A program made the position numbers and the translations under genes. 46,838 bases of DNA from Terriglobia bacterium (GTDB lineage: Bacteria; Acidobacteriota; Terriglobia; JAIQFV01), in NCBI GenBank assembly GCA_028716525.1, contig JAQUPQ010000032.1, positions 1 to 46,838 of the forward strand, written 5' to 3'. Below, piece by piece: positions 25,788 to 37,378 of this stretch. The notes beneath the pieces are model-generated. The model did no database searches and was not told the origin of the DNA. It was given only the letters and a program-made list of their open reading frames with translations. Position 1 is the stretch's first letter, and each line of letters starts with the position of its first letter.

Positions 25788-27110
25788 CTAGTCGGAGAGC
25801 CCCAACTGTTTCCGCAGTGAATCCACATCGGCTCTCCCGTCGTCTCGATTGCCGGACGGCGGCGCCAGATTCAAATAAAGTCCTTTCTTGGTGGCGATGT
25901 GAAACGCGCCGATATCCTTGCCCACAGTAGTATTGAGGCGGATTTCTCGAATCTCAGAAGCCGGAACCAGCTGCGGGGGTTCACCACCGCTGGGCGTGAA
26001 CGAAAGTGTTCCCGCATCCACGCTCAACAGTGCACCACATCCTTTTTCAAAATAGGTTTTGTCTCCCAATTGAGAATGGTCGTGGATCACCTTGATAGGC
26101 GCAGGAGCTGAATCCCCGCGAGTCACATTGGGACGGACTTTACGATAATTGTGAGGGGCGCTGTACGGGGCGGCCGGGGCTGCATAGCCGTATGCCGCGG
26201 ACTGGTCTGGAGAATTTCCGACCGGTCCGGGTTGGCCGTAGGGTTGTTGCTGACCATATCCAGGATTGCCTTGGGGTCCGCCGTAAGGCGCGGGTTGCCC
26301 GTAACCGGGATTTCCTTGGGGGGCACCATAGGGAGCGGGTTGACCGTAAGCCGGTTGCTGGCCGTATCCAGGATTGGCTTGAGGTTGGCCATAGGGCTGT
26401 GGTTGTCCATACCCGGGATTTCCCTGAGGCGCACCGTAAGGAGCGGGCTGTCCATAGGCCGGATTTCCTTGCGGGCCGCCGTTGGGCCCAGGCGCTCCAC
26501 CTCCATAAGGGTTGCTCGAAGGGTCCGGCTGTCCATAACCCGGCATGGAACCGTAACCACTGGGAGGAGCGGAGTATCCTGGATCACCCACCGGTGCGGA
26601 AGGATAGCCATAACCGCCGCCCGGAGGAGCCGCATAATTTCCCTGCGGCATGGCCTGCATTTGCTGAGCTCGAGCTGCGCGCGCCTGTTGAACTGCGGTC
26701 ATGACACCCGCGAAGATTGCGAGAGCCGTGTCGGCTTTTCCTCGGGTGACCACGGCCGGCGCTGCTCCGAGCACACGGGAGGAGACTTTGGGATCCAAGG
26801 ACTGAGCGGTTTGATTGAAGACCTTGGCCTGAGTAGTATCGCCGGCTTTTTCTGCCGCCGCGCCCATCGCCAAATAAACCGGGGCTTGCAGCAGAGGTTC
26901 GTTGGGAAACAACTCCAACCACCTGCGATAATCTCGGAGGGAAGCGGAATAGTTTCCTTCCAACTCTGAGGCGTGGGCGGATGCCAGGATTTGGTTTCCC
27001 ATATCCGGCTTGACCACGACGGAGAGGCGATTGTCAGCTGCCCACATTAAGCTCGCGCCAGCGAGCACTGTGAAAACCGCGATGAGTAAGATCTGCTTGT
27101 ACGCTTTCAT
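25788..27110 (-). CDS. Exported PYGQP-rich low-complexity protein with PH-like C-terminal domain
   Basis: 440 residues. Signal peptide ([19 protein letters not shown]), then a TPR-like helical part ([20 protein letters not shown] ... [16 protein letters not shown]). A ~170-residue low-complexity centre follows, built on units such as [15 protein letters not shown] and rich in Gly, Pro, Tyr and Gln. The C-terminal ~100 residues ([15 protein letters not shown] ... [13 protein letters not shown] ... [17 protein letters not shown]) look like a PH/GRAM-type beta barrel and helix. The ATG at 27110 has AGGAGG at ideal spacing. Y/G/Q/P-rich tracts in other proteins tend to self-associate; whether this one does is inference. 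It sits 58 bases behind the CHAT gene. Confidence 0.82.
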
Positions 27111-27168
27111 GTGATTCCTCCTATACAACACGTTTGTGTAAGCCCCCCACAATTAGGGCGGCATGGAA

Positions 27169-30100
27169 CTAGTTGGCGCCCGTCACAATAAAAGGCGCCC
27201 AGAAAAACGGATGAGAAAATTCCTTGCGCACCGACAATGCGGATTCCCTCATGGCTTCCGCAGGCAGCCGGCCCGATTGCAAACCGCGATAGAAACCTTG
27301 CATCAGGAGCGCTGTGGATTCGTCGCTCACTTTCCACAAGCTCGAGACCACCGTATCGGCTCCCGCCAATAAAAAGGTGCGCGTCAGGCCGGTAACCTCG
27401 TCGCCCTGCTGCAGCTTTCCGAGGCCGGTCTCACAGGCGCTTAACACCACCAGGTGAGCCTGCAATTTCATCTCCGTCAATTCATACAGGGAAAGGCGCG
27501 AAGGCTGGTGCGGCGCCGGGCTGGTCAGTATGGCGCTGAATAAGGGCGATTGTTCATCAAGGATTCCGTGGGTTGCCAGATGCACCTCTTGATATCGGCG
27601 CAAGGCGGCCACAACTTGATCGTGTGTAAAATTCTTTTCGAAGGCATCAACGGCTTTCGGGTAGATCTTCGCGATTCCCGCGGCTTCTTTGAGCGTTCCG
27701 GGAAGCGGCGCCATTCCGTCCACGGAGGTGTTGCCCAGCGCCCCCAAAAAGAGATCGTCTTTCAATTTTTGTTGGACCGGGAGAAACTGCAGCGTGGCGG
27801 CGCTCGGCAGATAGCTGATGGAAAATCTTTCGACGAGCGGATGTCCGGCGGTGATCGGCAGAACCTGGAATGGCAAATAACTCAAGTAACCTGCCGGAAC
27901 AATTAATAGGTGATGGATGTCTCCCGGCAGTTTTTCAAGAACGGGACGGAGAACGGCGGCGGATACGCTCTCCAAGAGGGGATCCAAATCCGATCCGGAC
28001 TCCGGGTCGGCCAGCATGGACCGCAACTGCAGGAGATCCTGCCGAAGTTTTTTCGGATCGGCCTTCCAGGTGACCTGTTGAGTATCGGCGCGCGTGGCAA
28101 CGAATGCTGTAAGGGAATCGGTCAAAAGAGAATATTCCACCAGGGCCGTGGACGGCGGAAGATGCTTTTGAGTGTCCCCGAGCCCAGGCGAAGAAATTGA
28201 AACAGCCTGGCCGGCGCGAGAATTTTCCAAGGCGGCCTGTTGGCGCGCTAAAGTGAAACGGGATTCCAATTCCTGCAATTGATCCCGAAGCACTGAAGGG
28301 TCTCGCCCCGAGCCTCGAACAAACGCTTGCGCCTGAGGACTCAACTGCAAACGCAGACTGATGATTTGATTTTCCAGCATTCGCAGTTTGGCGACCTGAG
28401 GCGTCGCGTTCCCGGATTGAAGCCTTCGTCCCTGGAACATTTCCAGGAAGGTCCTGGCTTTGCTTCGTTCCAAATAATCCCAAGCTTCCGCTTTTCGGCC
28501 GCTCTGGGAAAGCAAGGCAATGAGTCTTTGATAAAGTTCCTGGACCCTGGAGTTATCCATAAAAGCCCGGCGCTGGTCTTCCTGGCTGAAACCCGTTCGA
28601 ATCTCTTCAAGCCGTGCAACGGCCTTCTTGTACTGGTCGATCGCGGCGGGGATATCTCCCTTGGATTCCGCTAATAAACCTTGCGTGAAGCGGACTCGCC
28701 ATTGGGCATCGGCAAATTCGGCGGCTTGAGCTTCCTGCTCGACCACCTTGAGATCCTGCGTCGCGAGCTGCTCGGCTTCGGGCAAGGAGCTCCCGGGCGC
28801 AGTCGCGAGGAATCGCGCATATTCCAATCGTGCCGTCATTTCCCAGTTGCGGTTCCGCTCGTCCCGGTAGGCCTGAACAGTCTCCTCATAGAGTCGTTTG
28901 GCTTCTGAGGGCTGTTCGCCCACGGATTTTTCCAGACGGGCCCACTGCAGCAGCACGTCGGCACGATCGAATTTGGCCGGGTTTTTGGGGTCCGTCTTAA
29001 GCGCCTGCTGCAAAATATCGCGTGCCGTGTCGGGATCGTCATCGAGTTCCGAGAGGCGGGCTTTTCCCAAAAGCGCTTGAGCGTAATGGCGGTCTTGATT
29101 GGCGCGCACCGACATTTCAGGAATGCCGTCGGTGAACCGGATCATCTCATCGTAGCAATGCCGCGCCTTCGAGATTTCCCGGACGTTGGTGTAGGCGTCG
29201 CCCAGGGACTCGAGCGTCTGGAGATAATAGGAATCTTGAACCGTCCTTTCGGATAAGCGTGCGGCCGGTGGGATGGATTTCTGCAGATTGAGCGCTTCTT
29301 CCAAGGAAGCAATTTCATGCGATGTGCTGTTGGCCGCGCGGTAGCTCACGGCCAGCGATTGCAGAGTTTCGATCTGCCCTGGAATGTTTGCCGTTTTGCG
29401 AAATTCTTCCAGACGGGCCAGGTCTTCGCGTAAGAGGCCATCGAAGTCTCCGGCCATGCGGCGACGCATTCGGATGGCGAGCTGGGCGAAAGGGGATACC
29501 GAGAAGGGCAAAGACGGGAATTCCTTGTCAATCCGTCCGGCCAGCGAAGTGGCGTCCTGGTAAGAGAGACTTTGCATGGAGGCCAGAACACAGGTCATCA
29601 ACTGGCTGGCCACTTCGTATGAAAAATCTTCGGCCTTGGGCTGTCCTTTCACCCGATCCAGGGCCTCGTGCACGAAGGACAGAACGTCGTCATATTTTTC
29701 AGTTTCAATGGCGACATCCGACTGTGCCAGCAGCGCTCTGGCTTGAAAATAGGGAGTCGCGGAACGGGCTTGCTGCTGAAACTGATCGAGATCGGCTCGG
29801 GCGGCACCCACCTTGTGCCCGGCCAGGTCAGCCCTGATCAAATCACTCCACAGATTGGCGGCATGATCCGACGTCGGATCATTCATTACCTTCTGGGCTT
29901 GTCGATACTGCTGAATTCCTTCATCGAGGCGCCCCAGGCTGACGAGATCTTGAGCGATGTATTGATAGGGAATGTAGAGCGTTGCGGTTTGCCCGGATCG
30001 TTGTTGAAGCTCTAATGCTTTTCGGGAAACCGCCAGGGCGGCGACGTAGTCCTCTTCGTGGTTTCGATAATAGATGTTTTGAGCATTGGCGTAGACGGCC

Positions 30101-30516
30101 GCACGCATGAAATCGCCACGCGACTCATACAATTCAATCAGAGCATCAAGCGCCCGATGCAAATTGACCCAATCGTCGGCGGTGGCGGTGGTGGCCTGTC
30201 CTTTGGCCATGACTGCGGAAAGAACCGAGGCGGCCCGCGCAATGCCGTATCCGACAAAGAGGCCGGCGTCCTGCTGCGGTTGGAATTTCAGCTGACTGAG
30301 AAGTTGTTGGCCGGCTTGGACGAGGGCGTCGTTGGAGGAAGTCTGATCTGCTTGGGCCCGTAGGGCTCCGCTGCAAAATATCAGAAGGGAAATCGCCAGG
30401 AGTGAAAAGCGAATCATTCGGCCTCTGGATTCCGGCCTCGGCCAGGCGAGCGGGAATCTCCCGGTCCAAGCCTCTGCCAAGCAATCCAAGAATTGAGGTG
30501 TGATTCGCTTCATCAT
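27169..30516 (-). CDS. Exported TPR-CHAT protein (caspase-fold peptidase)
   Basis: 1115 residues. A hydrophobic export signal lies at about residues 34-55 (MIRFSLLAISLLIFCSGALR); an ATG at 30417 would start right at it. The ATG at 30516 directly abuts the preceding stop (TAGATG), which favours coupling. Residues ~70-700 are helical TPR-type repeats (AAVYANAQNIYYRNHEED, ALGDAYTNVREISKARHCYD, LLAESKGDIPAAIDQYKKAV). The C-terminal CHAT domain (PF12770) has catalytic His in VHLATHGILDEQ (near 983) and Cys in VVLSACETGLGK (near 1028), then FLLAGADTVVSSLWKV. CHAT peptidases are clan CD relatives of separase and caspase. Most act in the cytoplasm, so an exported one is notable. Substrate unknown. 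Confidence 0.9.
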   Translation of the reverse strand: MMKRITPQFLDCLAEAWTGRFPLAWPRPESRGRMIRFSLLAISLLIFCSGALRAQADQTSSNDALVQAGQQLLSQLKFQPQQDAGLFVGYGIARAASVLSAVMAKGQATTATADDWVNLHRALDALIELYESRGDFMRAAVYANAQNIYYRNHEEDYVAALAVSRKALELQQRSGQTATLYIPYQYIAQDLVSLGRLDEGIQQYRQAQKVMNDPTSDHAANLWSDLIRADLAGHKVGAARADLDQFQQQARSATPYFQARALLAQSDVAIETEKYDDVLSFVHEALDRVKGQPKAEDFSYEVASQLMTCVLASMQSLSYQDATSLAGRIDKEFPSLPFSVSPFAQLAIRMRRRMAGDFDGLLREDLARLEEFRKTANIPGQIETLQSLAVSYRAANSTSHEIASLEEALNLQKSIPPAARLSERTVQDSYYLQTLESLGDAYTNVREISKARHCYDEMIRFTDGIPEMSVRANQDRHYAQALLGKARLSELDDDPDTARDILQQALKTDPKNPAKFDRADVLLQWARLEKSVGEQPSEAKRLYEETVQAYRDERNRNWEMTARLEYARFLATAPGSSLPEAEQLATQDLKVVEQEAQAAEFADAQWRVRFTQGLLAESKGDIPAAIDQYKKAVARLEEIRTGFSQEDQRRAFMDNSRVQELYQRLIALLSQSGRKAEAWDYLERSKARTFLEMFQGRRLQSGNATPQVAKLRMLENQIISLRLQLSPQAQAFVRGSGRDPSVLRDQLQELESRFTLARQQAALENSRAGQAVSISSPGLGDTQKHLPPSTALVEYSLLTDSLTAFVATRADTQQVTWKADPKKLRQDLLQLRSMLADPESGSDLDPLLESVSAAVLRPVLEKLPGDIHHLLIVPAGYLSYLPFQVLPITAGHPLVERFSISYLPSAATLQFLPVQQKLKDDLFLGALGNTSVDGMAPLPGTLKEAAGIAKIYPKAVDAFEKNFTHDQVVAALRRYQEVHLATHGILDEQSPLFSAILTSPAPHQPSRLSLYELTEMKLQAHLVVLSACETGLGKLQQGDEVTGLTRTFLLAGADTVVSSLWKVSDESTALLMQGFYRGLQSGRLPAEAMRESALSVRKEFSHPFFWAPFIVTGAN

Positions 30517-30918
30517 CTAGGCTGCCTTGCGTCCTGCCAGTTCGGCTTTCCAGATCTTGCCCCTCTTGATTCCCGAAACAACATTTCCGGTCAGATCGGC
30601 GATTTGCAGGGCGTTGAATGCCGTTCCTGCAACGGCTCCCATGGCCGGCGTGGTGAGCGTCGCCGGCATGGCGGCGGCTGCGCCGTTAGGTCGCGCAAAG
30701 GAGAAGTAATACTTCTTCCCGTTGATGGTCGCCTTAAATGCCGCGTTCATGCTGTACCAGGGCCAGCGGAGATCGTGGACTTCTCCCAAAGGAACTTGAA
30801 AGAGACATCCTTCCTCTGTGCTGAACGACAAAGTCTGGTCGGCAAGCACCAACACTCCGGGCATATTGGTTAGGCCGCGGCGTTGCCAGACAATCGCCTG
30901 TAAAATTGGAGTCGGCAC
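30517..30918 (-). CDS. Small PH/GRAM-like protein 1
   Basis: 133 residues, no signal peptide. The order resembles a bacterial PH/GRAM fold: a start strand (PGVLVLADQTLSFST), then GCLFQVPLGEVHDLRWPWY, then KATINGKKYYFSFARPN, and a C-terminal helix after a Gly/Ala/Thr-rich linker. It shares the motif [LI]xWPWY and the following YYFSF strand with the next upstream gene, so the two are paralogues. Start GTG at 30918 with AAAGGAA five bases upstream. Its stop abuts the CHAT start. PH-like domains bind lipids or proteins; no ligand can be inferred. Confidence 0.78.
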   Translation of the reverse strand: MPTPILQAIVWQRRGLTNMPGVLVLADQTLSFSTEEGCLFQVPLGEVHDLRWPWYSMNAAFKATINGKKYYFSFARPNGAAAAMPATLTTPAMGAVAGTAFNALQIADLTGNVVSGIKRGKIWKAELAGRKAA

Positions 30919-30950: not shown

Positions 30951-31253
30951 TCACACTACACTTGCTGTTATGGCTCGCTTCCACCGGCGTCCCTTCCGCA
31001 CTCCCTGCCACCAGGAGTACAGAGAATTGTTTGTATGAAGAAACGAAATGAAGTATCGACGTTCTCCCACATGAGCCCAGAATTGGCATCCAAAGCCGTA
31101 CCAGGGCCAGGAGATTCGGAGCTCTGCCGTCGGTGCCTCGAACTCCACTCGATTTTCCAGATCGAATCGAAGCCGGTTGTCCTGAAGCCGCAAGATTCCG
31201 CGTTGGGGGTTAAACCCGCGTCCTGTCCAGACAGGCGTTTCGAGTTCCGGCAT
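30951..31253 (-). CDS. Small PH/GRAM-like protein 2
   Basis: About 100 residues. Paralogue of the gene at 30517: VWTGRGFNPQRGILRLQDNRLRF, FEAPTAELRISWPWYGF and RRYFISFLHTN match its blocks, and a basic tail ends it (GVRKGRRWKR). The ATG at 31253 was chosen because AAGGTGG, formed partly by the stop of the Sel1 gene, lies five bases upstream; a longer frame to 31310 would overlap that gene. No export signal, so it is presumably cytoplasmic or membrane-peripheral. Function unknown. Confidence 0.75.
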   Translation of the reverse strand: MPELETPVWTGRGFNPQRGILRLQDNRLRFDLENRVEFEAPTAELRISWPWYGFGCQFWAHVGERRYFISFLHTNNSLYSWWQGVRKGRRWKRAITASVV

Positions 31254-31263
31254 AGCGGCCACC

Positions 31264-31851
31264 TTAGTTGGAGGGCTTCCAGTTCTTGGCGGATTGTTGG
31301 GCCTGAGCAATCTGATCCGGCGTAAGCGACTTGCTCAAAATATCGCGATTCTTAGCACCCGCATCACCGGCCAAGATGAACCACTTTTGGGCTTCGACCA
31401 TGTTTTGCGTTATTCCCTGGCCATTGGCATACATGACCCCCAAATTGACCTTGGCGCTTGCCAGGTCATGATTGGCGGCTTTTTGATACCAATTGAACGC
31501 GTCCGTGTCGCTTTTGGTCACGCCTTGGCCCTTGTCGTAAAGTTGGCCCAGATCGAACATGGCGTCTTTGTCGCCGCCGTCGGCTGCCTTGCGATACCAC
31601 TGGGCGGCCTGGGCATAGTCCGCCGGACCCCCTTCACCTTTTTCATTCATCAACCCCAAGTTGAAGGCCGCCCCACTATTCCCATCGTTGGCGAGTTTGA
31701 GGAAGGCCGCACGGGCCTCGACATAGTGGCCGGAGTTATAGAGGTCCATGGCTTTCTGGCCCTCATCGCCCCCGCCAAACAGCTTGTAAACACGATAGCC
31801 CACTCCGGCGAGGATGATAAGGCTTAGACAGATACTGAGAATCTTCTTCAT
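31264..31851 (-). CDS. Membrane-anchored Sel1-repeat protein
   Basis: 195 residues. An N-terminal hydrophobic segment (ILSICLSLIILAGVGYRVY) without a clear cleavage site suggests a membrane anchor. Three to four Sel1-like repeats follow (GAAFNLGLMNEKGEGGPADYAQAAQWYRKAA in two parts, DAMFDLGQLYDKGQGV, SAKVNLGVMYANGQGI). Sel1 repeats are scaffolds for protein binding. The ATG at 31851 has GGAG seven bases upstream. It sits 39 bases behind the DUF3592 gene and 10 bases before the small PH-like gene. Confidence 0.85.
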   Translation of the reverse strand: MKKILSICLSLIILAGVGYRVYKLFGGGDEGQKAMDLYNSGHYVEARAAFLKLANDGNSGAAFNLGLMNEKGEGGPADYAQAAQWYRKAADGGDKDAMFDLGQLYDKGQGVTKSDTDAFNWYQKAANHDLASAKVNLGVMYANGQGITQNMVEAQKWFILAGDAGAKNRDILSKSLTPDQIAQAQQSAKNWKPSN

Positions 31852-31890: not shown

Positions 31891-32325
31891 TTAATGAGCG
31901 ACCAAAAACGACATAATGCCGATAACCGCGAAGACGCCTCCGACGATAGGCAGCAAAACGAGGGCGCCCGACATTTTGCGTTCCAACACAGCGGAGCCCG
32001 GTTTTTGGGGATCATAGAAAACACTGACGGCAGCTCCTGCGGGATACCGCTCAGCCGTTTTGCGAGCGGCAGCGCGGTTTCCGGAGGCGGCATTGCCGAA
32101 CGTGATGCGATTTCCTCGAAGGGAATTTCCCCCGACAACATATTCGTAGACCACCCGAGCTTCTTCAGCCCACTCGCCGTCGCTCCCACGGTAGCGGTTT
32201 ACGTCGGAAGCAATCACGCGACCCTGTGCTGACGGCCACTGCATGGCGGCCTGTGATTTCTTCTTAAGAAAGTACCATCCAGCGCACAACAGCAATCCAA
32301 CAAGAATGAAAAGCAAACCTGTCAT
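31891..32325 (-). CDS. DUF3592-family membrane protein
   Basis: 144 residues with two membrane segments, one at each end (LLFILVGLLLCAGWYFL and ALVLLPIVGGVFAVIGIMSFLV). Between them is the extracytoplasmic beta-rich DUF3592 part (GRVIASDVNRYRGSD ... YEYVVGGNSLRGNRI ... RYPAGAAVSVFYDPQKPGSAVLE). The YxPxxPxxAVLE ending is a family hallmark. The ATG at 32325 has GGAGG six bases upstream. A damaged copy of its 5' end is at 33775-33872. Function of the family is unknown. Confidence 0.88.
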   Translation of the reverse strand: MTGLLFILVGLLLCAGWYFLKKKSQAAMQWPSAQGRVIASDVNRYRGSDGEWAEEARVVYEYVVGGNSLRGNRITFGNAASGNRAAARKTAERYPAGAAVSVFYDPQKPGSAVLERKMSGALVLLPIVGGVFAVIGIMSFLVAH

Positions 32326-32344
32326 GATTTCCTCCAAAAAGGTG

Positions 32345-32398
32345 GGGTGTGGTCCGGGTTGTGCAAAAAAAACTTAAATTTCGCTCCCGACCACACCC
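32345..32398 (-). promoter_or_regulatory. Intergenic stem-loop between repeat protein 1 and DUF3592
   Basis: Arms GGGTGTGGTC (32345-32354) and GACCACACCC (32389-32398) pair perfectly over 10 bases. The 34-base loop contains eight T on the minus strand, and a second run of five T follows the stem before the DUF3592 ribosome site. It may be a leaky terminator or an mRNA end stabiliser. A counterpart lies after repeat protein 2. Confidence 0.6.
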
Positions 32399-32407
32399 GC
32401 CCGAGAT

Positions 32408-33430
32408 TTATCGAAAATTCGGATGCTGGGCCTTGTACTGTTGATTCAGGCTCACCAGCTGCTCATAGGTCGCACCCGTCGATGCCACCTGTTGGTCCCA
32501 ATAACGCATTTCCCCACTGTTGGGGTTGCGGCGAAAAACGGCCATGTAAGATCGGCTAATGGTTCCTTGTCGTTCAGCGGCGTTGGATCTCAAATACGTC
32601 TGATGACTTGCTAACAGGTTGTTGATATTGGCAACTCGCGAGTCACTTGCTGGAAGTCCATTCCAGTAAGCCAATTCGGCGGGGGAAGGAGCGCGGCCGA
32701 AGGCTCTTTCGTAAGATGTCGTGATCATACCCGATCGGTTGGCAACTGGCGGGGTAATAGGTCTGTAGGGCTGTTGAACTGGCGGAGTAATTGGTCTGTA
32801 TGGTTGTTGGGGGGCCGGAGCTGGCGTGTTGGGCCCGGTCTGAACCCATTTGCCGGGAAATTGAACCACCGTTGTACCAGTTGACTGTACACCGCGGAAG
32901 TTTCCACCGCCTTGAGCCACTACATTGCCACCACCTTGGGCGACCACATTGCCGCCCCCCTGAGCGACCACGTTAGAGGCAGCCACGATATTGCCTCCTC
33001 CTTGAGCCACCACATTGCCACCGCCTTGGGCGACAACGTACCCACCGTCGATTCCGAACAGGACACCGCTCGGATTCTTGACTGCAATATAGGCATGGTT
33101 ATCGCGTCCCATGAACACAGACAGACTCACCCCCTGCCGTGACATCAATTGCAGATAGGCATGAAGGTTACTTTCCAACTGAGGGGCTGTGGTCCATGTT
33201 CCATAGTTTGAAGGGTCACAGTCGCCCGAAGTGCCGATGCCGCCGGTGGGCCGGTTGAACCCAGCGGTCAGATTCCACAGAGCCCAACTGATAAATGGAC
33301 TGCTGCAAGGGTTGTTGGTATAAAAGTTTCGATCCTTTTGACTCATTCCCCAATCGGCGTTCATGGGGACAGTCAAAACCAAGGCCAGAACGGTAGCGGC
33401 GCAAAGCAGAATCAACTTCGATTTAATCAT
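32408..33430 (-). CDS. Exported octapeptide-repeat protein 1 (paralogue family, DUF4214-like C-terminus)
   Basis: 340 residues. Signal peptide (LILLCAATVLALVLTVPMNA). An N-terminal ~95-residue domain has two cysteines (NPCSSPFISW, GDCDPSNYG). Then five copies of an eight-residue unit VVAQGGGN follow, with one shorter break (IVAASN), and after them a VVQFPGKWVQ strand and a Pro-rich linker (QQPYRPITPPV twice). The C-terminal ~110 residues carry two SYxxxFxRxPxxxExxYW units like DUF4214 (SYERAFGRAP, SYMAVFRRNPNSGEMRYW). The ATG at 33430 has AAGGAG seven bases upstream. The short repeats would suit a narrow beta solenoid. Function unknown. Confidence 0.85.
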   Translation of the reverse strand: MIKSKLILLCAATVLALVLTVPMNADWGMSQKDRNFYTNNPCSSPFISWALWNLTAGFNRPTGGIGTSGDCDPSNYGTWTTAPQLESNLHAYLQLMSRQGVSLSVFMGRDNHAYIAVKNPSGVLFGIDGGYVVAQGGGNVVAQGGGNIVAASNVVAQGGGNVVAQGGGNVVAQGGGNFRGVQSTGTTVVQFPGKWVQTGPNTPAPAPQQPYRPITPPVQQPYRPITPPVANRSGMITTSYERAFGRAPSPAELAYWNGLPASDSRVANINNLLASHQTYLRSNAAERQGTISRSYMAVFRRNPNSGEMRYWDQQVASTGATYEQLVSLNQQYKAQHPNFR

Positions 33431-33774
33431 GGTGGGTCTCCTTTTTCTTGGGTTCACGTTTGAATCCCCGAACGAATTCCGGGGAAGCACGAATTGCAAT
33501 CCAGACGTCCAGCAGCAATTCAGAATTCTCCAGGGTCCGCGCACCAATATTGAATGGGTGAGCTGCCAAGTTCTTTTCTCGTGGTGTTCCGACATAGACT
33601 CGACCCAGTCCTGAATTTCATTGAAAAGGTGCAGATCCGTGGGTGTTCATCCATGTAACGCGTAATGTGGACCCAAAAACTCTCATTTATTTAATAATTG
33701 TTCCGGTGACCAGTCTTGCGGACGGACAAGATCGCCAAGCCCCGTCAGGGGCGGAAGCCATCACACGACCCGGA

Positions 33775-33872
33775 GCTGACGGTCACTGCATGGCGGCCTG
33801 TGATTTCTTTTTAAGAAAATATCAGCTGGCGTATAACAGCAATCCAACCAGATTAAAAAGCAAACCTGTCAT
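33775..33872 (-). pseudogene. 5' fragment of a DUF3592 gene with in-frame stops
   Basis: Reading from the ATG at 33872 gives MTGLLFNLVGLLLYAS, a stop where the intact gene has Trp, then YFLKKKSQAAMQ and a second Trp-to-stop change. It matches the first ~36 codons of the gene at 31891-32325, including its GGAGG ribosome site. Homology ends near 33775 at a dispersed-repeat remnant. The fragment shows that a past duplication took the repeat-protein gene together with the start of the next gene. Confidence 0.85.
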
Positions 33873-33889
33873 GATTTCCTCCAAAAAGT

Positions 33890-33944
33890 GGGGTGTGGTC
33901 CGGATTGTGCAAAAACATCTTAAATTTTGCTCCCGCCACACCCC
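33890..33944 (-). promoter_or_regulatory. Intergenic stem-loop after repeat protein 2
   Basis: Arms GGGGTGTGG (33890-33898) and CCACACCCC (33936-33944), loop 37 bases. It is the paralogue of the structure at 32345-32398; the arms have changed but the pairing is kept. Confidence 0.55.
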
Positions 33945-33952
33945 TTCGAGAT

Positions 33953-35008
33953 TTATCGAAAATTCGGATGCTGGGCTTTGTATTGTTGATTCGAGCTGAC
34001 CAGCTGTTCATACGTGATTCCAGTTCTCGCCACTTGTTGGTCCCAATATTGCATTTCGGCGCCGGTGGGATTCCGTCTAAACACCGCCATGTAAGATCGG
34101 CTTATGGTAGCTTGTCTTTCGGCCGCATTTGATCTCAGGTAGGTCTGGTGGCTCTGTAACAACGAATTGATGTTGGCGACGCGTGAATCATTCGCCGGAA
34201 GGCCTGTCCAGTATGCCAGCTCGGCCGAGGAAGGAGCTCGACCAAAGGCTCTTTCGTAAGACGTCGTGACCATACCCGATCGGTTGGCAACTGGCGGGGT
34301 GTTAGGCCGGTACGGTTGTTGAACTGGCGGGGTAACTGGTCTGTAGGGTTGTTGAACTGGTGGAGTAGTTGGTCTGTAGGGTTGTTGGGGGGCCGGAGCT
34401 TGCGTGCCAGGGGCGGTCTGAACCCATTTACCTGGAAATTGAATTACTGTTGCACCCGCAGCCATTATGCCGCGGAAGTTCCCAGCGCCCTGTGCGATGA
34501 CGTTTCCGGCGCCCTGTGCGATGACGTTTCCGGCGCCCTGTGCGATGACCTGGGCTGCGGGGACGAAATTTCCTGCACCCTGAGCTATCACGTTTCCGCC
34601 GTTTGTGGAAACCAATCGGCCGGCGTCGATGCCCAGCACGATTCCGTTGGGCTTGGCAATGGATATATAGGCATTTCCATCACGCCCCTGGAAAACAGTA
34701 AGCCTCAGTCCTTGGCGAGCAAGCAACTGCCGATAGGCTTGGAAGTTGTTTTTCAACTGTAGCTGAGTACTCCAGTTGCCGTAGTTTGAAGGGTCGCAGT
34801 CACCTGTCTGGCCAATTCCGCCTTTGGGTCGCGAAATCCCGCCAGACTCGTCATACAGTACCCAGCTGATGAAAGGGCTACTGCAGGGATTGTTGGTAAA
34901 AAAGTTTCGATCCTTTTGGCTCATTCCCCAATCGGCGTTCATGGGGACAGTCAAAACCAAGGCCAGAACGGTAGCGGTACAAAGCAGAATCAACTTCGAT
35001 TTAATCAT
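33953..35008 (-). CDS. Exported octapeptide-repeat protein 2
   Basis: 351 residues with the same architecture as protein 1: signal peptide (LILLCTATVLALVLTVPMNA), Cys-pair domain, repeat tract, Pro-rich linker (QQPYRP motif three times) and the two DUF4214-like units. Its repeat unit is VIAQGAGN, and the 24-base DNA repeats in 34490-34560 are nearly identical to each other, so the expansion is recent. The ATG at 35008 has AAGGAG seven bases upstream. It is closest to protein 1 in the C-terminal part and to protein 3 in the N-terminal part (SWVLYDESGGISRP), which suggests recombination among the copies. Confidence 0.85.
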   Translation of the reverse strand: MIKSKLILLCTATVLALVLTVPMNADWGMSQKDRNFFTNNPCSSPFISWVLYDESGGISRPKGGIGQTGDCDPSNYGNWSTQLQLKNNFQAYRQLLARQGLRLTVFQGRDGNAYISIAKPNGIVLGIDAGRLVSTNGGNVIAQGAGNFVPAAQVIAQGAGNVIAQGAGNVIAQGAGNFRGIMAAGATVIQFPGKWVQTAPGTQAPAPQQPYRPTTPPVQQPYRPVTPPVQQPYRPNTPPVANRSGMVTTSYERAFGRAPSSAELAYWTGLPANDSRVANINSLLQSHQTYLRSNAAERQATISRSYMAVFRRNPTGAEMQYWDQQVARTGITYEQLVSSNQQYKAQHPNFR

Positions 35009-36032
35009 GGTGGGTCTCCTTTTTCTTGGGTTCACGCTAGAATCCTCAAACGATGTCCGGGGAGGCACGATTTGCAATCCAGACGTCCAGTAGCAATTCA
35101 GAATTCTCCAGGATCCGCGCACCTATGTTGAATGGGTGAGCTGCCATGTCCTTTTTTCGTGGTGTCCCGACATTGACTCGACCCAATCCTGAATTTCATT
35201 TAAAAGATGCAGATCCGTGGGTGTTCATCCATGTAACGCGTAATGTGGACCCAAAAACTCTCATTTATTTAATAATTGTTCCGGTGACCAGTCTTGCGGA
35301 CTGATAAGATCGCCAAGCCCCGTCAGGGGCGATGGAAATCTATTTTTGGAGCAGTTCCTCATGCGACGTGGTCACACCCAGGAGCATGAAAATCGTACAA
35401 AGTGTGCGACCATAGGTTTGTGAAGGCTGGTCCGCCAGCTTTCTGGGGGATAGCCCACCAGAAGTTCCGTCCGCCTAGGCCGGGGAACATCCCGGAGAAT
35501 AGGCACGGGCACCACTGCATACCGACCCCGCAGAGGATTGAACGGTAAATGTCTGTGCCCGATTTCTATTTCGCCCCTTCGGGGCTCCGTCGTTAAAACG
35601 CGCCCTTTCCCGGGGCTCACGCCCCGGGCTACTGAACGCCGTCCCTCCGGGACTATTTTCGGAGCAGTTCCTCATGCCCCGATGTATCGGGGCACCCACG
35701 AGCGTGAAAATGAACTCAGGCACTAGAAGCGACGGTTTTCTGGTCCCTGCAAGGGACACCTTCAATAGCCCAGGGTTGTCCGCCGACTTTTTTGGCGGAC
35801 AACCCTGGGTCCAGCGGACCCATAGGATCGCCAAGCCCCGGCAGGGGCGACAGAAACCTCTCCTATTTTCGAGGCAGTATGGGGCCGTACAGAGAAATCG
35901 GACCGAGTCTCTTGTGTGGTCATGAGATCTCGTGAAAACGTGTGCGCGAATTCACTCTAGGGTTGAGAGGCGCCTGCGCGGATGTTCAAAAAAAGTCTGA
36001 TCTCCTCGCCAGGCGCATCTCCATGCCGGGAG
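35009..36032. other. Repeat-rich intergenic region between repeat proteins 3 and 2
   Basis: About 1 kb. 35009-35280 is the leader of repeat protein 2, homologous to 33431-33700. 35285-35880 is dispersed repeats (separate entry). 35881-36032 holds the stem-loop after repeat protein 3: GCGCCTG (35970-35976) with CAGGCGC (36010-36016) and seven T in the loop on the minus strand. A 119-codon minus frame at 35475-35834 is repeat sequence, not a gene. Confidence 0.55.
35285..35880. repeat. Dispersed palindromic repeat cluster, locus 2
   Basis: Carries the modules of 17095-17395 in reverse orientation: CCAAGCCCC(G/T)xCAGGGGCGA, CCCCGATGTATCGGGGCAC, GTCCCTGCAAGGGAC, GCCCAGGGTTGTCCGCC with a mirrored GGCGGACAACCCTGGG, and CCTCTCCTATTTTCGAGGCAG. 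More palindromic pieces lie at 35560-35660 (CGCCCCTTCGGGGC, GCCCCGGGCT). Some modules occur twice, at the left end and in the middle, so it looks like nested insertions. No coding potential is linked. Confidence 0.8.
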
Positions 36033-37043
36033 TTATCGAAAACTAGGGTTCTGGGCCTTGTATCGGGCGTTCATCCCGACAAGTTCGTCATAAAGCGTCC
36101 CGGACGCGGCAACTTGCTGGTCCCAATACCGCAACTCGCCGCTGGTCGGGTTACGTCTGAACACGAACATGTAGGACCGTGCGATCATGGCCTGTCGTTC
36201 GCTGGCGTTGGATCTTAAATAGGCCCGGTGGCTGGCCACCAAGGAATCGAGATTGGCAACGCGCGAGTCACTCGCAGGCAAGCCGTTCCAATAATTAAGC
36301 TCAGGCCCGGATGGATCCCGGCCAAAAGCACGCTTGTAGGAGAGACGAATCATGGATGCGCGGTTCGTTGCCGGCGGGGAATAGGGATTGTTGGGCCGTT
36401 GCGGGGCAGGAGCTGGATTGCTGGATCCCAACTTGACCCACTTTCCCGGAAACTGGACCACGGTGTCTCCCAGTGCTTTCACACCATAAAAATTTCCTGC
36501 GCCGGATGCGACGATGTTTCCTGCGCCCGAAGCAACGATGTTTCCTGCACCTGAGGCCACAATATTTCCCGCGCCCGAGGCCACAATTTGTGAGGCTGCA
36601 ACGATGTTCCCTGCGCCGGAGGCCACGATACTGGATCCACCTTGGCCAACCACACCCGCATCAATGCCCAGCAGAATTCCATCGTTACGTGCCACCACAA
36701 CATAGGCATGGCCATCGTTGCCGCGCCCGACGGCCAGCCTCAGTCCTTGGCGAGCAAGCAACTGCCGATAGGCTTGAAAGTTGTTTTTCAACTGTTGCTG
36801 AGTCCTCCAGTTGCCATAGTTTGAAGGGTCACAGTCACCTGTCTGGCCAATTCCGCCAGTGGGTCGCGAAATCCCGCCAGACTCGTCATACAGTACCCAG
36901 CTGATGAAAGGGCTACTGCAGGGGTTGTTGGTAAAGAACTGCAGATTCTTCTGGCTCATTGCCCATTGAGCGTTCATGGGGACAGTCAAAATCAAAGCCA
37001 GAAGCACAGTGGTGCAGAGCAGAATCAATTTCGACTTAATCAT
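36033..37043 (-). CDS. Exported octapeptide-repeat protein 3
   Basis: 336 residues, most distant copy of the family. Signal peptide (LILLCTTVLLALILTVPMNA), Cys-pair domain, a tract of six IVASGAGN units with a break at IVAASQ, the FPGKWVK strand, a short Pro/Asn linker without the QQPYRP repeats, and two DUF4214-like units (SYKRAFGRDPSGPELNYW, SYMFVFRRNPTSGELRYW). The ATG at 37043 has AGGAG at a suitable distance. It is the first gene of the minus run and faces the kinase at 37618 across a 574-base divergent region. Confidence 0.85.
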   Translation of the reverse strand: MIKSKLILLCTTVLLALILTVPMNAQWAMSQKNLQFFTNNPCSSPFISWVLYDESGGISRPTGGIGQTGDCDPSNYGNWRTQQQLKNNFQAYRQLLARQGLRLAVGRGNDGHAYVVVARNDGILLGIDAGVVGQGGSSIVASGAGNIVAASQIVASGAGNIVASGAGNIVASGAGNIVASGAGNFYGVKALGDTVVQFPGKWVKLGSSNPAPAPQRPNNPYSPPATNRASMIRLSYKRAFGRDPSGPELNYWNGLPASDSRVANLDSLVASHRAYLRSNASERQAMIARSYMFVFRRNPTSGELRYWDQQVAASGTLYDELVGMNARYKAQNPSFR

Positions 37044-37378
37044 GGTAGGTCTCCTTTTCTTGGGTTAACGTTTGACTCCCCGAACGATTTCGGGGGATGC
37101 ACGGTTCGCAATCCAGAGGTCCAATAGCAATTCAGGATTTTCCAGGGTCCGCGCGCCAATATCGAGAGGGTAAGCCATCCGATAAGCTGGCAAGTCCTTA
37201 TCCGGCGGCGTTCCGACATTGACTCGACCTAGTCCTGAATTTGATTCAGGACATGCAAATTCTTTGGTGTTCACCCACGTAACGCGTAAATCAGCGCCAA
37301 AGACTCTAATGGTCTTGAAAATTTTTTCGGTGGCTAGAATCAATGCTCCGTTTTGCCCGTGTTTCCGTGTGGAAAGAA

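What the first reader, a model, noticed from the sequence alone, without database searches (positions are those of the whole stretch)
32408..37043. Three tandem exported proteins with within-gene homogenised octapeptide repeats
Each paralogue has its own version of the eight-residue unit (VVAQGGGN, VIAQGAGN, IVASGAGN), and repeats inside one gene are more alike than between genes. In the second copy the 24-base units are almost identical. This implies recent or ongoing repeat expansion in each copy on a common ancestral solenoid, flanked by a Cys-pair domain and DUF4214-like units. It may be a variable surface protein family.
Basis: seen in the sequence. Interest (0 to 1): 0.65.

Follow-up and report, generated by a model that had tools for sequence, protein, structure and literature searches.

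The report
Exported proteins with matched octapeptide repeats
Three neighbouring bacterial genes make exported proteins carrying a short eight-residue repeat that is also found in many unrelated exported proteins from at least ten phyla; in each protein the repeats match one another although their DNA spellings have mostly drifted apart, which suggests selection for stacking and not fresh copying.

Summary
Three tandem paralogues (g1, g2, g3) each carry 4-5 perfect copies of their own octapeptide (VVAQGGGN, VIAQGAGN, IVASGAGN), between a signal peptide plus Cys-pair domain and a DUF4214-like tail. The reading "recent expansion in each copy" mostly fails: codon identity among units is at chance in g1 (p=0.21) and g3 (p=0.12); only three units of g2 are near-identical DNA. 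The octapeptide is not local. In 117 genes the freely varying position 4 matches 87% within genes and 31% between, while silent sites are near random, even for units more than 40 residues apart. AlphaFold2 models a long array as a beta-solenoid, but that program is known to do this for perfect repeats of random sequence, and it gives no structure for g3's own array. In Acidobacteriota an exported CHAT-TPR protease-like gene lies next to the octapeptide gene in 7 of 13 sampled loci. Best explanation: a portable, exported, stacked beta-arch module whose units are held alike by selection. Function remains inferred.

The parts
32408..33430 (-). g1: exported protein, 340 aa (signal peptide, Cys-pair domain, 5 x VVAQGGGN, Pro-rich linker, DUF4214-like tail)
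33953..35008 (-). g2: paralogue, 351 aa, 4 x VIAQGAGN
36033..37043 (-). g3: paralogue, 336 aa, 5 x IVASGAGN
32900..33037 (-). g1 octapeptide array (5 units plus a 6-residue interruption IVAASN)
34478..34591 (-). g2 octapeptide array (4 units plus FVPAAQ); preceded by the degenerate unit LVSTNGGN at 34592-34615
36492..36629 (-). g3 octapeptide array (5 units plus IVAASQ); preceded by the degenerate unit VVGQGGSS
33143..33313 (-). g1 Cys-pair domain (C..P.I...GxC[DN]xxxYGxW)
34721..34891 (-). g2 Cys-pair domain
36756..36926 (-). g3 Cys-pair domain
32411..32740 (-). g1 DUF4214-like tail, two helical units
   Evidence: alignments
33956..34285 (-). g2 DUF4214-like tail, two helical units
   Evidence: alignments
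36036..36362 (-). g3 DUF4214-like tail, two helical units (AF2 pLDDT about 81-96)
32744..32820 (-). g1 proline-rich 11-residue repeats (QQPYRPITPPV), 2 copies; g3 lacks them
34289..34387 (-). g2 proline-rich 11-residue repeats, 3 copies
32205..35331 (-). head-to-tail duplication: 35331-33752 matches 33753-32205 at 79%, about 1.57 kb per unit, running into the next gene
33753..33884 (-). truncated copy (44 codons, 84% identical) of the DUF3592 gene left behind g2 by the duplication
31891..32337 (-). DUF3592 membrane-protein gene directly after g1
27169..30417 (-). exported TPR-CHAT protein (signal peptide, ATHG and SACETG motifs); orthologues lie next to octapeptide genes in other Acidobacteriota
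25788..27152 (-). exported TPR-like protein that also follows CHAT in L042, L095, L119 and L195
37618..40482 (+). Ser/Thr kinase with C-terminal TPRs, divergent from g3; homologues lie near octapeptide genes in L028, L053, L060, L090

Best explanation
g1-g3 are exported proteins of a so far unnamed family: signal peptide, a small Cys-pair domain, then a short octapeptide array, here with a DUF4214-like tail. I infer that each octapeptide forms one short strand plus a Gly-rich turn (hh-A-x | G-[GA]-G-N), that two octapeptides make one coil of a flat beta-arch stack, and that identical residues from successive coils line up in ladders (Asn at position 8, Q/S/A at position 4). Stacking would make mismatched units costly, so all units of one protein stay alike while silent sites drift. 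Shown: export signals, domains, spread over phyla, protein-level matching with near-saturated silent sites, paralogue mosaicism, recent DNA-level duplication in g2 only, CHAT linkage in Acidobacteriota. Inferred: the fold, the ladder reason for matching, and the role, which I take to be a self-stacking or surface/matrix module for extracellular binding domains, in this locus working with the exported CHAT-TPR protein.
For: Protein-level uniformity without DNA-level uniformity in g1 and g3. In 117 genes with 3 or more units, within- versus between-gene identity is 0.88/0.37 at position 1, 0.87/0.31 at position 4 and 0.90/0.65 at position 6, while fourfold sites are 0.51 identical against 0.43 by chance; in the 52 genes with saturated silent sites it is still 0.86/0.31, 0.90/0.35 and 0.87/0.67. 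Units more than 40 residues apart: position 4 the same in 80%, fourfold sites 0.44. In one MAG with 27 such genes, matching is by gene, not genome (0/2000 shuffles reach it). Ser at position 4 is spelled with both TCN and AGY codons in 3 of 23 arrays. Hymenobacter orthologues differ in concert: sisters L077 (4x IVAAGGGN) and L091 (4x LVASGGGN) are 84% identical elsewhere. AF2 model of an 11-unit array: a strand in every unit, pLDDT 83-93 over most of the octapeptide part, pTM 0.71; top VIA-align rows are CsgA fibril Z 10.1 and Lolium ice-binding protein Z 9.2. 67 of 86 array proteins have signal-peptide-like starts, 4 in shuffled controls. CHAT linkage.
Against: AF2 gives confident but unrealistic beta-solenoids for perfect repeats of random sequence, units of 5-30 residues included (PMC11795689), so the array model is weak evidence. 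g3's own array is unstructured in its model (pLDDT about 23-40). VIA Z below about 13 for repeats may be a common arrangement, the rmsd of the two top rows is 8.2, and Foldseek found nothing at E<=0.001. Window arrays make only 2-3 coils. Matching could be an old unit-turnover relic kept by purifying selection. No function was tested.
Confidence: 0.5

Rival explanations
1. Recent or ongoing DNA-level expansion (slippage, unequal crossing-over, gene conversion) homogenises each array; the protein uniformity is a by-product.
For: Last three units of g2 are 22-24/24 identical; a minority of other arrays are near-identical DNA, for example L058 and L136; mosaic tracts that look like gene conversion exist among the paralogues.
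Against: g1 and g3 silent sites are at chance; mean fourfold identity is 0.51 against 0.43 expected over 117 genes; distant units match at position 4 with chance-level silent sites.
Confidence: 0.15
2. Old expansion followed by ordinary purifying selection: each protein keeps its ancestral unit because its own ligand or partner demands that sequence, without any unit-to-unit stacking.
For: Explains uniform protein and drifted silent sites; array length is 3-4 units across Hymenobacter orthologues.
Against: Positions 1, 4 and 6 vary freely between genes yet change in concert between close orthologues, which needs many parallel changes unless units are coupled or turned over.
Confidence: 0.2
3. 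The array is a flexible Gly-rich linker or tail with no defined fold.
For: Low pLDDT in g3; high Gly content; 26 of 110 ORFs with a visible stop carry it at the very C-terminus.
Against: Almost invariant hh-A-x-G-[GA]-G-N register, conserved hydrophobic pair, matching across distant units, stops exactly in register after Asn. Linkers drift in sequence.
Confidence: 0.1
4. The octapeptide protein is a substrate or activator of the exported CHAT protease, the repeated GGGN|VVA junctions being repeated cleavage or docking sites (clan CD enzymes have strict P1 preferences; legumain cuts after Asn).
For: CHAT-TPR gene directly or almost directly downstream in L042, L065, L095, L112, L113, L116, L119 and further downstream in the window; exported, His/Cys motifs present; full-length orthologues in only 5 of 399 class genomes.
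Against: Two of the five genomes with this CHAT lack an octapeptide gene beside it; octapeptide loci outside Acidobacteriota showed no CHAT-like gene nearby with the motif used; the P1=Asn idea is from memory and untested.
Confidence: 0.12

Closest known systems
Curli CsgA and curlin repeats
   Same: Exported; half-repeat N-x-hydrophobic-x-hydrophobic-x-Q followed by a Gly turn, with selection for matching inward residues in the centrosymmetric class (PMC10192328); the octapeptide reads like a shortened N-x-h-x-[QSA]-G-G-G half-repeat; the CsgA fibril is the top structural row.
   Different: 8-residue instead of about 11-residue half-repeats; no QX10Q spacing; no curlin hit in Pfam; embedded in multidomain proteins; only 4-5 units here.
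Ice-nucleation proteins and beta-solenoid ice-binding proteins (comparison from general knowledge plus fold search)
   Same: INP also has octapeptides pairing into 16-residue coils; ice-binding beta-rolls appear in the fold searches.
   Different: No AGYGSTxT-type motif or TxT ice-binding ladder; far fewer units; no sequence match.
DUF4214 proteins (PF13946)
   Same: Tail of g1 and g2 passes the Pfam cut-off; Bacteroidota proteins L044, L082, L086, L089 join DUF4214 units to C-terminal octapeptide arrays.
   Different: DUF4214 has no octapeptide by definition; the Cys-pair domain is distinct or very distant (hhalign probability 16%).
TPR-CHAT proteases such as Csx29 of Craspase
   Same: TPR plus CHAT neighbour with His/Cys motifs.
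   Different: Here exported, no CRISPR effector seen, substrate unknown.

Membership tests
Curli (CsgA) | Sequence match to the curlin repeat model | tested here: not met
   Pfam scan of g1-g3 at E<=1 returned only DUF4214
Curli (CsgA) | 22-23 residue repeats with QX10Q spacing | tested here: not met
   Unit is 8 residues; position 4 is Q, S or A; curlin definition from PMC10192328
Curli (CsgA) | Two-strand-per-coil beta-solenoid | tested here: inconclusive
   AF2 model of a related array and VIA Z 10.1 to CsgA, but AF2 is biased to solenoids
Curli (CsgA) | Linked secretion gene csgG | tested here: inconclusive
   One CsgG-domain gene in the genome on another contig; such genes are common
DUF4214 (PF13946) | Score above the Pfam gathering cut-off of 23.2 bits | tested here: met
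   g1 26.1, g2 26.2; g3 22.2 is just below
RTX beta-roll | GGxGxDxUx nonapeptides with Ca-binding Asp | tested here: not met
   Period 8, no Asp in the arrays
Phase-variable / antigenically variable surface protein | Repeat number or sequence differs among strains | not testable with these tools
   No close relative with these genes in 60 relatives; only distant ones in 299 class genomes
CHAT peptidase (neighbour, PF12770) | CHAT domain with His and Cys motifs | tested here: met
   PF12770 E 2e-62; ATHG and SACETG; activity not tested
Anti-phage defence proteins (PADLOC) | Match to a defence model | tested here: not met
   g3 and the CHAT protein have no hit; the neighbouring kinase hits only kinase models such as PD-T4-6

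The most novel reading that the evidence does not exclude
The hh-A-x-G-[GA]-G-N octapeptide is an undescribed, portable, exported self-stacking module, a shortened curlin-like beta-arch, used by at least ten phyla; its units are kept identical within each protein by selection on the ladder itself, and in Acidobacteriota it is coupled to an exported CHAT protease.
Probability: 0.25. Interest if true: 0.75.

Novelty: new variant of a known kind. Interest (0 to 1): 0.55.

Why it matters
If right, a short widespread repeat that no Pfam or NCBIfam model caught in the proteins scanned here, and that the held papers do not mention under the spellings tried, marks exported stacking proteins across many phyla. 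It gives a clean natural test of selection for unit-to-unit matching, because protein and silent-site signals separate. It also corrects a common inference: uniform repeats in one gene need not mean recent expansion. The link to an exported CHAT-TPR protein gives a handle on what extracellular CHAT proteins do in Acidobacteriota.

Tried and rejected
Full-length profile of g1-g3 in 60 relatives and in genome contigs: no relative; the Cys domain and the octapeptide had to be searched apart. A first, narrow octapeptide pattern found only the own genome among 297. Weak hits of the first Cys-domain profile in G491 and G353 look like TonB-receptor-type sequence and were dismissed. NCBIfam and PHROGs gave nothing useful. 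Alpha-synuclein and putidacin rows in the PDB sequence search are composition matches. Fold searches with the g3 model: no row with Z>=5; the tail's best row is a phycobilisome linker, Z 3.4. Octapeptide spellings are in no held paper; the other spellings tried returned only chance text matches. The CHAT-octapeptide link was tested from the CHAT side and is common but not obligate. L049 and L068 look like chance pattern matches.
Full report
OBSERVATION. The window (contig C32 of a 4.2 Mb genome) carries three - strand genes, g1 32408-33430, g2 33953-35008 and g3 36033-37043, each starting at MIKSKLILLC behind AAGGAG. Layout: signal peptide; a Cys-pair domain (NPCSSPF...GDCDPSNYGxW); predicted strands; the octapeptide array; two more predicted strands; a proline-rich linker with 11-residue repeats (2 copies in g1, 3 in g2, none in g3); a DUF4214-like helical tail. 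Arrays: g1 5x VVAQGGGN, g2 4x VIAQGAGN, g3 5x IVASGAGN, all interrupted by a hexapeptide at the same place and preceded in g2 and g3 by a degenerate unit. The shared interruption points to a common ancestral array.

ORIGIN OF THE THREE GENES. g1 and g2 are a head-to-tail duplication of about 1.57 kb (35331-33752 with 33753-32205, 79%) that ran into the next gene and left a 44-codon remnant of DUF3592 behind g2. The paralogues are mosaics: upstream sequence and signal peptide are 88-97% alike in g1-g2; the Cys domain is 93-97% alike in g2-g3 with 20/20 fourfold sites identical, but only 63-68% in g1-g2; the array and the strands before it are among the most diverged parts in every pair (fourfold identity 0.17 in g1-g2 against 0.54 in the tail and 1.0 in the signal peptide). 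Gene conversion among copies is thus likely, and it did not level the arrays.

IS IT RECENT EXPANSION? Codon identity among units against random codon choice: g1 0.41 versus 0.36 (p 0.21), g3 0.42 versus 0.34 (p 0.12), g2 0.52 versus 0.38 (p 0.06, driven by its last three units, 22-24 of 24 bases). So only part of g2 looks recently copied.

THE OCTAPEPTIDE ELSEWHERE. A DNA pattern for GxGN-hh-A-x-GxGN-hh-A hit only this genome and one other (G476) in 250 class genomes. Record titles name Acidobacteriota, Verrucomicrobiota, a MAG labelled Cyanobacteria, Bacteroidota, Alpha- and Betaproteobacteria, Gemmatimonadota, Chloroflexi, Actinomycetota, Planctomycetota and Eremiobacterota. 67 of 86 ORFs with a complete 5' end have signal-peptide-like starts, against 4 in shuffled controls. 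Companion domains include the Cys-pair domain (Hymenobacter, Gemmatimonadaceae, Caulobacteraceae, Pyrinomonadaceae, Bryobacterales), DUF4214 (L044, L082, L086, L089), ricin-B lectin (L029, L042, L043, L099, L116) and, by its sequence, an Rhs-type protein (L084). In 26 of 110 ORFs with a visible stop the protein ends exactly at the Asn of a unit; only 5 end 1-10 residues later. This register is unexplained.

MATCHING WITHIN GENES. Over 117 genes with at least three units, within-gene versus between-gene identity is 0.88/0.37, 0.95/0.76, 0.87/0.31 and 0.90/0.65 at positions 1, 2, 4 and 6; positions 3, 5, 7 and 8 were fixed by the pattern. Fourfold silent sites are 0.51 identical against 0.43 by chance. 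The 52 genes with saturated silent sites still show 0.86/0.31, 0.90/0.35 and 0.87/0.67 at positions 1, 4 and 6. Units more than 40 residues apart share position 4 in 80% of 967 pairs with chance-level silent sites (0.44). In one MAG with 27 such genes, matching is by gene, not by genome (0 of 2000 shuffles). Hymenobacter orthologues differ in concert, for example IVAAGGGN x4 against LVASGGGN x4 in a sister pair 84% identical elsewhere.

STRUCTURE. AF2 on mature g3 with 14 sequences: confident helical tail, moderate Cys domain, array pLDDT about 23-40. AF2 on an 11-unit array from L084 with 20 arrays: a strand in every unit, pTM 0.71, block pLDDT 83-93 from residue 41 on. VIA-align puts the CsgA fibril (Z 10.1) and the Lolium ice-binding protein (Z 9.2) first, both with rmsd 8.2; Foldseek gives nothing at E<=0.001. 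AF2 is known to build confident beta-solenoids from perfect repeats of random sequence (PMC11795689), so this is only compatible with a solenoid. The curlin half-repeat N-x-h-x-h-x-Q followed by a Gly turn, and its class with matched inward residues (PMC10192328), is the closest known logic: an octapeptide reads N-x-h-x-[QSA]-GGG. The family fails the sequence definition of curli and is not filed there.

NEIGHBOURHOOD. The window also has an exported TPR-CHAT protein (27169-30417) and an exported TPR-like protein (25788-27152). Homologues of the CHAT protein lie directly or almost directly downstream of octapeptide genes in L042, L095, L112, L113, L116 and L119, and a more distant CHAT-TPR gene follows in L065: 7 of the 13 Acidobacteriota loci in the scan (L042, L053, L065, L076, L080, L090, L094, L095, L112, L113, L116, L119, L143). 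The own genome has three CHAT genes. Full-length orthologues of this CHAT occur in 5 of 399 class genomes, with a clear gap to the rest. From the CHAT side, G585 and G642 have no octapeptide gene beside it, so the link is frequent but not obligate. A Ser/Thr kinase with TPRs stands divergent from g3, and homologues occur near L028, L053, L060 and L090.

VERDICT. A real and fairly widespread feature, ordinary in the sense that exported repeat proteins abound, unusual in how strictly units match within a protein while silent sites drift. Best read as a portable stacked beta module; function and fold are inferred.

Noticed in passing
35609-35654 (+): Rfam Acido-Lenti-1 RNA (RF01687, 56.5 bits) in the g2-g3 gap; a second copy sits near another copy of the dispersed element in L025.
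   Followed up: partly
33718-33753, 35296-35341, 35814-35859 (-): Dispersed element (core around CCTGACGGGGCTTGGCGATC) at the start of each duplicated cassette; 44 matches of the 181-base query genome-wide. It may have mediated the duplication.
   Followed up: partly
35769-35809: Near-perfect inverted repeat (GGTTGTCCGCC...GGCGGACAACC) in the g2-g3 gap.
   Followed up: no
37043-37332, 35008-35286, 33430-33708 (-): About 280-300 bases upstream of each gene are conserved among all three copies, up to 84% with g3 and 88-97% between g1 and g2; possible shared regulatory region.
   Followed up: no
loci L040-L158: 26 of 110 octapeptide ORFs with a visible stop end exactly on the Asn of a unit; last units sometimes read GGLN, GGMN or GGAN, like a cap.
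   Followed up: partly
JAQBPE01 contigs (L040, L046, L117, L122 and others): One MAG labelled Cyanobacteria bacterium RYN_339 holds at least 27 genes with octapeptide arrays, mixed with LITNDGGS / LISTNGGG sister octapeptides.
   Followed up: no
30517-30918 and 30951-31310 (-): Two small genes that look alike (both with ..WPWY.. and YFIS/YYFSF stretches), without Pfam match; a homologue of one lies after CHAT in L095.
   Followed up: no
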